In this document: piece by piece, positions 50,301 through 62,882 of the stretch | Layout: each line of letters opens with the position of its first letter | Position numbering within the stretch: position 1 is the first letter of the stretch | Assembly (NCBI RefSeq): GCF_036324505.1 | Contig: NC_086363.1 | Coordinates: 400,001-464,000, forward strand | Origin: Eleginops maclovinus | Taxonomy: Eukaryota > Chordata > Actinopteri > Perciformes > Eleginopidae | DNA: 64,000 nucleotides | Direction: 5' to 3' | Made by a program: the position numbers and the translations under genes | Notes under the pieces: model-generated | The model's database searches: none | What the model was told of the DNA's origin: nothing | Seen by the model: only the letters and a program-made list of their open reading frames with translations

Positions 50301-53300
50301 CATTTCCCGTGTTTTAGTGAAGATGTTTCTCTGACGCATTAATATCCTGTTTTCAGAAGATGGAATCTTTTTTCAATTTGATTGTTGAGTCACACTTCAG
50401 TGTGAGGTCCTCCCACCTGAATGTTTATATTTCTTGATAAGAAACTTGCTTTATGTTTTAAAACTCACGTGTTCCTTTAACTTATTCATCTCCTCTCAAC
50501 ATGGACATCCTTTATGTGTTTTGTCTTTATGTCCTTCCTCTAAACTCCTGGCTCTCAGCTCCCCTGCTGTGCTTCACCTCGGCCACTAGGTGTCGCTGCA
50601 GTGTTTCTAATGTTAGTCGACACCACTCTAATGCACTCCTTCTCCTCCCTCAGCTCCTGCAGGAGGCCCGCTGCACTCCTCCGCTGACAGGTTCTCTGAG
50701 TTTAATCAGAAGTGTGTGAAATGTTGTCTCCTGTCAGAGAGGACGAGCAGCGGGACGTCTCACAGAAACCGGACGGACTGAGACACTCGGAGAAGAACAA
50801 GGAAACAAAGAAGTGACGAAAACACGGATGTGGAAGAAGATGAGGAGAGACATATAAAGTGGATACCAAGAGAGAGAGGGACAGAGGAGAGGAACAGGTA
50901 CCAGGGTAAAGACTACAGTCTGATTGGACAACTAGTCTATGAGATAATATCCTCCCAAAATCACGACCATCCCGTACCTGATGGACGTCGGCATTCACCT
51001 GATTTACAGCCGTCTAAATCTACAACAGGGGAAACCACTATTGATTCTTCCTACTGATTAGAGACAGACACCACCACCTGACACGCAGATTAATCATGTC
51101 TTCAGTCTTAAAATCTGTTGTTCTTTATGCAAAGGGACCACCCAAAGCTTTCATACTACCTGCAGCTCGATTTGCTTCAGGATTTGTACATCAAGCATTA
51201 CTCGCACACTATATGGCCAAAAGTCGGCGGACACCAACATTAATAAAGGCATATTCATCTGCTCTGAAGTATTTTTTAAATCCAACATAAATATAAAGAT
51301 ATTGCTGTTATTCTGAAAAATACCGGATTCTGTTTTACAGTAGCTGTTAAAATAGCTGCGTTGCACCGTGCAGAATCAGCCTTTCTATTCCTTCAACAAC
51401 CTCTACATGAAGCTCAGGTTTGGACATTAATGCAAAACCCAAAACCTGGAGATATCCAAGTCTTTGATCGTGTTTAAAAGAAGGTCTGTTTCTCCTGACC
51501 AGAAATGTTGGCTTTTTTTCCTTCCAGTCCAGTACAGAGTCCCTGTGGCTCACACTGCAGGAGAAACCCAACTGAGACTCAGATTAAAACCTGAATAATA
51601 TCAGCATAACCCTAATGTCTTGAAGGGGAAAAGCTGCACTGCCTGTAACTCACTGTGGAGCTGGAGTTCGTCGCTAGGGCTACACAAGTTATCTGAACCT
51701 CACCCCGTTTACAGTTAGAACTCACAACCAATACCACACGTTGAATACCGGAACAGCAGAGCGCCACGGTTTGCTGCGCTTGGCTTCGTTCACACTGGCA
51801 CGGTTGCATCTGAAGCCAGTGCTGAGAAGCAGAGAGACGCACATTACCGCCGGTCGATGCTACGGCGCAAAACAGCTCTCAATGTTGTTTCAACTGCAGC
51901 CAGAATAGTCAATCAGGGGTGAGACTCTCCGGCTGACGTGCACAGTCCGTATCTGTTCAAAAACTGACCGAAAAGCGTTCTGGTTTTGGCATGGCACACA
52001 GCCAATGCGTCAATTATGTCTACTGATGTTCTGAGGAGTGTGGACGGAGCAGCGACAACGTTAGCTTAGCCTAGCGCGATCTCAATTCAGAAAACATTTA
52101 GTAATGTCTTATGTCTGCCGCCTTGCCAAAGCATTGATGCAATCAGTATGTCGTTTAGAGATGTGCATTCCAACCAATCAGAAAACCACGTTGTTGTTGT
52201 TGATATCTAATCAGAGAAGTCTGCCTCGATACCAGTTTGAGTGACAAGAGTAAACAAGATGTTTAGCGTGTACTCCGGGATGAACACACCGTGAGAAAGT
52301 GAAGCCGACCAAACGTCCGAATGTGAAGTTAGGAGATCTTAAAGTAAACTTTTGGCCGTCTAGTTTAACAACAGATAGATTTTAAGACTCAAAGACGTTT
52401 TACAGTGCATGCTTCAGTCATTATGGTTCTCTACGTCTACAGCTCTGGTCGTTACTGCATGACATACTGTTCCCCGATGACAGTCCACACAGACATGTAA
52501 AATGAAAGCCATGTTTACATTGGCATGGCGCCGCGGGCTCGGCTGCTGAGTGGGGTCCCCCGCTAACGCTAGCGGACAAACTGACTGCTTTGAGGGTGGT
52601 CGAGGTTATAAAACGGTGAGCGTCGATGACCTCGGGCATCGCAGGGGACGGCTTGACATCGTCACCATTAATGGAAACTCCTGAGTGCTGGTTCCCACTC
52701 AGGTTCAAACTGGGCTTTGAAACAGTTAAATTTGACTTTGTAGACGTGCTTGAATCCCCGCTGAGATCTGATACTTGTTTGCTGCCTGTCCCCGGAGATG
52801 CTTCCAGATCTCCATTTCCAATTAGGGTTGCAGCTTGTTCAGCCTTTGTGGTGTTGGTCTCTTTAATCGGCTCTGAAGGCGAGTCTTTGATTGTTAAAGA
52901 AGTCGTTGCGTTGTTTTTAAGGCCTGCTGTGTCGCTCCCCGGAGGTGTGAACCCAGAAGTGAGGCCTTGACCTGGGGCGTGGATAGAGGAGAACGTGGGG
53001 GATCCGGAGGCTGGAGGGGAAGAGGGGGTATTGAGTCCAGAAGTGTGGAAAGGGTTCAGAATAACAGGAGCATTGTGGGGCTGTTGTGGTCCTGAGGCAG
53101 CGGGGTGTGGAGGGGCAGTTTGCATATCAGCAGGAAACGATTGAGAGTTCAGGGAAGCATTTACATCCAGAGTGACACTATCATGGGTGGAGGAAGCCAG
53201 CTGTTCATCATCTGCAATGTGTATCTTTGGAACAACATCGGCAGGGTCAAACGAAGCAGCCAGATGCCACAGGTTCCCAGACGAACTCCGATTGTTCGAG

Positions 53301-62882: not shown

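What the first reader, a model, noticed from the sequence alone, without database searches (positions are those of the whole stretch)
52421..62882. Mucin-like stalk inserted in ADGRG6 between the expected pentraxin and SEA domains
Five small phase-1 exons and one exon of about 4.1 kb, all Ser/Thr/Pro-rich and all on the ADGRG6 strand, enter the SEA exon in its own phase 1. A giant S/T-rich exon is known in ADGRG4; mammalian ADGRG6 has only a short linker with one alternatively spliced S/T-rich insert. In this fish the receptor would carry about 1,450 additional residues of probable O-glycan stalk, holding the ligand-binding CUB/pentraxin tip far from the membrane. That would matter for mechanically activated signalling through the tethered agonist.
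Basis: partly seen in the sequence, partly recalled or inferred. Interest (0 to 1): 0.88.

Follow-up and report, generated by a model that had tools for sequence, protein, structure and literature searches.

The report
Giant conserved stalk exon in ADGRG6
In this fish the gene for ADGRG6, a receptor needed for nerve insulation and ear development, holds a giant 4.1-kb extra exon whose relatives occur in gene models of ADGRG6 from clownfish to salmon and a pacu-like fish; it is predicted to add about 1,360 unfolded residues between the receptor's ligand-binding tip and its membrane part, and would let one gene make a short or a very long force sensor.

Summary
On the minus strand lie five small phase-1 exons and a 4,092-bp phase-1/1 exon (52468-56559), between the PTX/disulfide-loop exons and the SEA exon (49978-49893) of a colinear ADGRG6 gene. 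The 1,364-codon frame far exceeds shuffled DNA (longest 354) and is single-copy. It is very likely a real ADGRG6 exon: 33 database proteins carry at least part of it, including ADGRG6 models of Amphiprion, Gouania, Pholidichthys and the characiform Acnodon; 8 of 33 join it to SEA at the same residue. It therefore likely predates the split of zebrafish's cohort from other clupeocephalan teleosts and is not peculiar to this fish. It is an optional cassette: 5 of the 120 listed best hits include it. "Mucin-like" is only partly right: S+T 27%, 2.8% of 100-residue windows at mucin density, no tandem repeats, conserved islands ending in C-x-C-x7-C-x-C just before SEA. Likely mechanism: a length and conformation switch in the exon-6 splice slot; some gene models also end in a way that would give a secreted ectodomain. 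No reads were available; the mechanism is inferred. Known kind (ADGRG4-like stalk, exon-6 splicing), new variant; not described in the papers searched.

The parts
62811..62882 (-). small cassette exon s1, phase 1/1, 24 aa (AASSPATQSTYSTNTIHATNAITH)
   Evidence: splice signals and length 0 mod 3; 88% identical to an Amphiprion ADGRG6 isoform
61736..61864 (-). small cassette exon s2, phase 1/1, 43 aa, 65% Ser+Thr
   Evidence: first 19 residues match Trematomus ADGRG6 at 89%
60436..60480 (-). small cassette exon s3, phase 1/1, 15 aa, least certain
   Evidence: splice signals only
59536..59613 (-). small cassette exon s4, phase 1/1, 26 aa
   Evidence: nearly the same peptide in Dissostichus and Trematomus ADGRG6 models (read by eye)
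58508..58591 (-). small cassette exon s5, phase 1/1, 28 aa
   Evidence: 75% identical to the Dissostichus ADGRG6 model
52468..56559 (-). giant cassette exon, 4,092 bp, phase 1/1, 1,364 aa
   Evidence: open frame, chance test and splice sites, 23 homologues, held-out profile test, single copy
56063..56251 (-). conserved island RSSKTSLGFISTPLIWQGRKRP...HITK in the giant exon
   Evidence: conservation scan of 25 homologues
55652..55873 (-). conserved islands LSNRKNKP-APQW...SGSE-F-Y and AFSLYDFDAAYTLDEP
   Evidence: recognisable in the salmon and Acnodon proteins (by eye)
53204..53275 (-). conserved island FDPADVVPKIHIA
   Evidence: its core is in 14 of 33 homologues, not in the salmonid, Dallia or Acnodon ones
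52468..52543 (-). C-terminal end of the giant exon with C-x-C-K-x6-C-x-C-G-LSSGN directly before SEA, the most conserved part
   Evidence: 26 of 33 homologues; near-invariant columns in alignment A1
52466..52467 (-). donor GT (ACA|GTATGT) joining the giant exon to SEA exon 1
   Evidence: same junction residue K in 8 of 33 proteins
52517..52518 (-). possible upstream donor (CAAT|GTAAAC); joined to SEA exon 1 it would give CAA-TAG, a stop after PCQ
   Evidence: two models (Mastacembelus X1, Salvelinus X10) end exactly at PCQ
52421..52423 (-). stop codon met if the giant exon is read through its donor
   Evidence: Amphiprion X2 ends this way
49893..49978 (-). SEA domain exon 1, entered in phase 1
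49691..49743 (-). SEA domain exon 2
41622..41728 (-). GPS exon with CDHL-THFGILM (cleavage site and tethered-agonist start, motif recalled)
26185..40131 (-). remaining 7TM and C-terminal exons of ADGRG6
   Evidence: PDB match

Best explanation
The 4.1-kb frame is very likely an old, optional coding exon of ADGRG6, with relatives in many teleosts, that lies in the same splice slot (between the PTX-side disulfide loop and the SEA domain) as the short exon 6 of zebrafish and human ADGRG6, and it likely works as a length and conformation switch of the receptor's outer part. Shown by sequence: place, strand, phase, homology in 33 proteins, single copy, and the junction residue in 8 of those 33. Skipping it gives the ordinary compact receptor. 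Including it would put up to about 1,500 mostly disordered residues between the CUB/PTX tip and the SEA-HormR-GAIN-7TM part: a contour of about 375 nm at the mucin pitch of 2.5 A per residue. Inferred: as with the 23-residue exon 6, insertion would break the CUB-HormR closed form and raise basal activity, while the long slack tether would let the tip reach distant matrix and lower the pull that reaches the tethered agonist for a given displacement. The C-x-C-x7-C-x-C end just before SEA likely forms a local disulfide knob that stands in for the now distant disulfide loop.
For: Exon order, phase and colinearity with ADGRG6. Chance excluded. 23 homologues at E <= 0.01 and 9 (the query included) from a salmon query, Acnodon at 1.1e-21. 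A profile of 18 sequences without the window, Gouania, salmonids, Dallia or Acnodon scores the window at 1.2e-292, salmon 2.5e-30, Coregonus 9.9e-29, Gouania 6.8e-20, Acnodon 2.1e-16, Dallia 7.3e-16; cut short by 60 residues all five relatives still score (10 of 10 with filters off), while 10 of 10 shuffled or reversed controls and the ADGRG2/4-type frame do not (E-values for a search space of one). Same giant-to-SEA junction residue in 8 of 33 proteins. Models with and without it in one species: Gouania X3 against X8, X9; Amphiprion X2 against X9, X10, X16; Mastacembelus X1 against X4, X10. Disorder: AlphaFold2 of relative P0019, mean pLDDT 39.2, 0 of 1,066 residues at 70 or more; no Pfam domain. 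Literature: exon 6 lies between disulfide loop and SEA, and its inclusion opens the ECR and raises basal activity (PMC6954182, passages); lengthening the human GPR126 N terminus with a fluorescent protein abolished antibody activation (PMC9259995, passages).
Against: No RNA read was seen; all junctions are gene models, and some models skip or fragment the exon. Only 5 of 120 listed best hits include it, so it may be rarely used. In the nearest relatives (notothenioids) it looks less secure: the three Trematomus proteins listed lack it, and the Chaenocephalus and Dissostichus models run partly in another frame near 56100-56615 and skip pieces. The two Logan proteins that span CUB to 7TM (P0071, P0097) are the short form. 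Five of 33 proteins reach later ADGRG6 domains by other joins. Composition is poor for a mucin, so the stalk may be less stiff and shorter than 375 nm. With HMMER's default filters some real relatives were missed (P0130 without its end and P0145; P0130 without its end, P0145 whole and P0148 without its end). Opening, slack and the disulfide knob are untested.
Confidence: 0.62

Rival explanations
1. The giant exon is mainly the 3' end of a secreted CUB-PTX ectodomain: reading through its donor, or using an upstream donor inside the CQC codons, stops translation before SEA, so inclusion makes a soluble decoy and not a long receptor.
For: Amphiprion X2 runs CUB-PTX-small exons-giant exon and stops 9 residues past the donor; Oncorhynchus masou 'mucin-2-like' ends the same way after 14, and Mastacembelus X1 and Salvelinus X10 end exactly at PCQ. 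In the window the upstream donor joined to SEA exon 1 would read CAA-TAG. Soluble N termini by premature stop are common among human adhesion GPCRs (PMC11039983, passages). Poly(A)-type hexamers lie 1.7 and 2.2 kb behind the stop.
Against: 8 of 33 proteins continue into SEA with the same junction. The read-through tail is not conserved in length (2 to 34 residues in 18 proteins). No AATAAA or ATTAAA lies closer than 1.7 kb behind the stop.
Confidence: 0.2
2. The frame is expressed as a separate mucin-like gene nested in ADGRG6, as the salmonid database names mucin-17-like and mucin-2-like suggest.
For: Some models start inside the exon (Salmo P0130, Oncorhynchus P0141, Salvelinus P0142).
Against: Those starts give no evident signal peptide by eye; the Salmo model itself runs on into the ADGRG6 SEA and 7TM; Amphiprion, Gouania, Pholidichthys and Acnodon models join it to ADGRG6 exons on one or both sides; the 3' junction is conserved.
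Confidence: 0.04
3. A fading exon: ancestral and once useful, now drifting and rarely spliced in this lineage.
For: Two notothenioid models are fragmentary and the three listed Trematomus proteins lack it; zebrafish is described with a 23-residue exon 6 in the passages seen.
Against: In this window the frame is fully open for 1,364 codons, with donor, acceptor and conserved islands present; constraint elsewhere is strong at the C-terminal motif (26 of 33).
Confidence: 0.12

Closest known systems
ADGRG6/GPR126 exon 6 splice switch (zebrafish 23 aa, human 28 aa; PMC6954182)
   Same: Same slot between disulfide loop and SEA, Ser/Thr-rich, optional
   Different: The giant exon is about 60 times longer; several cassettes; it carries its own conserved islands and a four-cysteine end. 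The passages seen describe only the short insert.
ADGRG4/GPR112 PTX-mucin stalk-SEA receptor (PMC10687090)
   Same: A long Ser/Thr stalk between a PTX-like domain and SEA; proposed as spacer and shear sensor
   Different: There the PTX-like domain is the very N-terminal tip (no CUB before it) and the stalk is described as mucin-like throughout. An ADGRG2/4-type paralogue in this genome has a 1,181-codon frame with 38.5% S+T (window mean) and 114 N-glycan sequons against 27% and 15 here, and no detectable homology.
Transmembrane mucins with SEA (MUC1, MUC16 type; recalled)
   Same: Ser/Thr/Pro-rich stretch ahead of a SEA domain
   Different: Below mucin density, no tandem repeats found, and a GPCR with a GPS

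Membership tests
ADGRG6 (GPR126) | 7TM closest to ADGRG6 among adhesion GPCRs | tested here: met
   one exon, TM2-TM4: PDB 21du_R E 3.9e-45, next ADGRG2 1.4e-38
ADGRG6 (GPR126) | CUB-PTX-SEA-HormR-GAIN-7TM order on one strand | tested here: met
   exon-by-exon match of Trematomus ADGRG6, CUB and PTX lying beyond the window
ADGRG6 (GPR126) | disulfide loop of two close cysteines between PTX and SEA | tested here: met
   CDSPGLGC exon about 1.5 kb beyond the window; the bond itself is not tested
ADGRG6 (GPR126) | Pfam SEA_Gpr126 domain behind the giant exon | tested here: met
   in relatives P0101, P0130, P0148; the window's own SEA was compared by tblastn only
Giant-exon cassette of teleost ADGRG6 | phase 1/1 exon homologous to those of other fishes, joined to SEA | tested here: met
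   junction known from gene models only
ADGRG4 (GPR112) | PTX-like domain at the very N-terminal tip, no CUB | tested here: not met
   a CUB exon precedes PTX
Mucin / PTS domain | about 40% or more S+T with Pro over 100 residues (threshold recalled) | tested here: not met
   2.8% of windows of the giant exon; exon s2 alone reaches 65%
Mucin / PTS domain | tandem repeats | tested here: not met
   Tandem Repeats Finder: none in 52400-56600
Mucin / PTS domain | dense O-glycosylation | not testable with these tools
   364 Ser+Thr available; no glycan data

The most novel reading that the evidence does not exclude
The giant exon is a three-way switch older than the split of the main teleost lineages: skipped, it gives the compact receptor known from zebrafish and mammals; spliced at its last donor, it gives a very long-tether receptor with a new four-cysteine knob at SEA; cut at a donor inside the conserved CQC-K codons or read through, it gives a secreted CUB-PTX ectodomain. 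The conserved C-x-C-K sequence would then serve both as protein knob and as splice signal, and the standard zebrafish model would miss two of the three products.
Probability: 0.3. Interest if true: 0.78.

Novelty: new variant of a known kind. Interest (0 to 1): 0.62.

Why it matters
ADGRG6 is a leading model for how adhesion GPCRs turn matrix contact and force into signals in myelination, ear and skeleton. How tether length and outer-domain shape set force sensitivity is open; the length changes I met in the papers seen are artificial fusions or a 23-28 residue exon. A natural, old, optional insert more than fifty times longer than exon 6 makes that question testable in the receptor's own splice slot. 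It also means that salmonid 'mucin-17-like' and 'mucin-2-like' records are probably parts of ADGRG6, and that conclusions from zebrafish may not carry over to other fishes.

Tried and rejected
ADGRG4 as the gene: rejected, because 7TM and domain order are ADGRG6. Common origin of the giant exon with the ADGRG2/4-type stalk: tested by blastp (best E 2.2) and by two profiles (no hit, or a negative score with filters off), not supported. The PTX + 7TM genes on C9 and C12 were fetched in search of ADGRG4; among frames of 110 or more codons on the gene strand I saw no giant Ser/Thr exon, and they look like ADGRD-type genes (my reading). A furin site in the giant exon: RRRRNIFG here and R-x-x-R-[VI]FG-type in 10 of 33 relatives, in none of the nine salmonid, esociform and characiform proteins P0130 and P0141-P0148; not kept as part of the mechanism. 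Conserved-island patterns written as regular expressions were too strict (15, 23, 12 and 14 of 33), so the alignment scan is the better measure; it used 25 of the 33, without P0005, P0007, P0021, P0141, P0142, P0144, P0146, P0147. In one search, which I first meant to cite, the P0145 cut was wrong and default filters dropped real relatives, so it was redone as with Gouania held out and filters also off. Many profile members are unnamed Logan proteins, so I cannot call the profile percomorph-only. Short SEA query against the PDB gave nothing useful. AlphaFold2 gave only disorder, so no fold search was run. No nucleotide-level selection test was possible: relatives were available as proteins only. 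Whether zebrafish, gar or tetrapods hold an unannotated copy could not be tested. Paper searches (in only 20 of 38 and 25 of 9,520 papers were listed) showed no description of this exon; subscription journals and preprints are mostly not covered.

Full report
The gene. The window is C15:400001-464000 of an unnamed 606-Mb fish genome in 27 contigs. The Trematomus protein maps exon by exon, in order and on the minus strand, from CUB and PTX (beyond the window's high end) to the last coding exon at 26185-26400. The TM2-TM4 exon is closest to human ADGRG6 among solved structures, and the GPS exon reads CDHL-THFGILM.

The insert. Between the disulfide-loop exon (CDSPGLGC, about 1.5 kb beyond the window) and SEA exon 1 lie five small exons and one of 4,092 bp, all 0 mod 3 and all phase 1/1, so any of them can be skipped without harm to the frame. 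Together they code for up to 1,500 residues. The giant frame beats 200 dinucleotide shuffles (1,363 codons against a maximum of 354), has no Pfam domain, no tandem repeats found and occurs once in the genome.

Relatives. The giant exon as query found 23 proteins at E <= 0.01 among 7,973 scored candidates, among them NCBI ADGRG6 models of Amphiprion ocellaris, Mastacembelus armatus, Dissostichus eleginoides and Pholidichthys leucotaenia. A second search with the SEA-to-7TM part listed the best 120 of 2,255 proteins; 5 of the 120 hold the giant exon with its cysteine end (P0012, P0017, P0023, P0101, P0130). Many of the others hold varying sets of the small cassettes. A third search from the Salmo salar protein, which its source calls mucin-17-like, gave 9 proteins: itself, other salmonids, Dallia and the characiform Acnodon oligacanthus. 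Together 33 proteins carry at least part of the exon, some only a small part (P0147). Taxonomy puts Acnodon in Otophysi and Gouania and Dallia in Euteleosteomorpha, so the simplest reading is that the exon predates that split. A profile of 18 sequences (3 named: Amphiprion, Mastacembelus, Pholidichthys; 15 unnamed) that leaves out the window, Gouania, salmonids, Dallia and Acnodon finds all six; with filters off, the five relatives score both whole and without their last 60 residues, and 10 of 10 shuffled or reversed controls do not. The named hits are all fishes.

Constraint. A scan of 25 homologues along the window's exon shows islands of conservation, such as RSSKTSLGFISTPLIWQGRKRP, LSNRKNKP-APQW, AFSLYDFDAAYTLDEP and FDPADVVPKIHIA. 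The strongest is the end, C-x-C-[KN]-x6-C-x-C-G, in 26 of 33 proteins; of the other 7, two stop at PCQ and five are models that skip this end. Eight of the 33 run on into SEA with the same junction residue K, at the donor that I had chosen on the window before seeing them.

Other ends. Amphiprion X2 and Oncorhynchus masou P0141 read through the donor and stop after 9 and 14 residues; Mastacembelus X1 and Salvelinus X10 stop at PCQ. In the window, a donor at CAAT|GTAAAC joined to SEA exon 1, which begins AG, would read CAA-TAG. These are gene models. The 16 other proteins that read past the donor come from Logan or ENA contigs that seem unspliced (several begin in the intron) and say nothing about splicing. 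But two annotations from distant lineages ending at the same residue make a secreted form worth testing.

Mucin or not. The giant exon has 27% Ser+Thr and 12% Pro; 2.8% of its 100-residue windows reach 40% Ser+Thr with 5% Pro, against 32.5% for a 1,181-codon frame of an ADGRG2/4-type paralogue on C21 of the same genome (its TM2-TM4 exon is slightly closer to ADGRG2 than to ADGRG4). The latter has 114 N-glycan sequons against 15. AlphaFold2 of the relative P0019 with 17 sequences is disordered throughout (mean pLDDT 39.2). So it is a long disordered spacer with motifs, O-glycosylated to an unknown degree; the small exons s1, s2 and s4 (42-65% S+T) are closer to a mucin.

Mechanism. In zebrafish and human, exon 6 (23 or 28 residues, Ser/Thr-rich) sits between the disulfide loop and SEA; without it the ectodomain is closed by CUB-HormR contacts and the loop, with it the ectodomain is more open and basal activity is higher (PMC6954182, passages read). 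The exons here occupy the same slot, so the same effect is the plain expectation, on a larger scale. At 2.5 A per residue, the mucin pitch quoted for ADGRG4 (PMC10687090, passages), 1,500 residues span 375 nm. Elongating human GPR126 at its N terminus abolished antibody activation, and elongation lowered the mechanical response of dCIRL (PMC9259995, passages), which points to lower gain in the long form. That the four-cysteine end replaces the disulfide loop next to SEA is my inference from position and conservation.

Results against. No reads. Inclusion is rare among listed models. The nearest relatives are the weakest: the three listed Trematomus proteins lack the exon, and the Dissostichus and Chaenocephalus models change frame near its 5' end and skip parts; with proteins only I cannot tell annotation error from decay. 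Five other models reach later ADGRG6 domains by joins that skip the exon's end. Zebrafish is described with the short exon only in the passages seen.

Literature. Eight searches (two of the lists capped) and passages of PMC6954182, PMC10687090, PMC11475505, PMC13197933, PMC9259995, PMC9105363 and PMC11039983 showed no account of this exon. It exists in databases as gene models, partly under mucin names.

Verdict. Observation confirmed; interpretation right on the gene and the place, too narrow on the fish, too strong on mucin, and silent on optional use and secreted ends. New variant of a known kind.

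Noticed in passing
window 46004-47822 and 47861-49671: Tandem duplication, 94.7% identical over 1,848 columns with 32 mismatches and 43 gap openings, of the block with SEA exons 3-4 and both HormR exons. Each copy has frame breaks in G-runs, and the copy at 48504-48618 lost a HormR cysteine; it looks like a false duplication of the assembly.
   Followed up: partly
window 52519 and 49978: Salvelinus X10 and Mastacembelus X1 end at the same residue (PCQ), which suggests a conserved alternative donor inside the CQC-K codons giving an immediate stop.
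   Followed up: partly
window 56447-56458 (giant exon residues 35-38): RRRR before N-IFG: a polybasic, furin-like site at the head of the giant exon, present in similar form in 10 of 33 relatives.
   Followed up: partly
G000:C21:7798375-7801918 (L033): ADGRG2/4-type paralogue with a 1,181-codon repetitive frame rich in N-x-T: 114 sequons, a stalk that would be N-glycosylated rather than classically mucin-like.
   Followed up: partly
window 32219-34222 and 14939-16390; also L017: Long open frames made of one tandem repeat (LNISRRGLFKVETLHTDIH on one strand) that recurs on another chromosome: probably a satellite, not a gene.
   Followed up: no
L012:6299-7384: A 362-codon frame that looks like a Tc1/mariner-type transposase upstream of ADGRG6 (name recalled).
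   Followed up: no
salmonid proteins P0130, P0141, P0142: Records named mucin-17-like and mucin-2-like are wholly or partly the ADGRG6 giant exon, a naming problem that hides it.
   Followed up: yes
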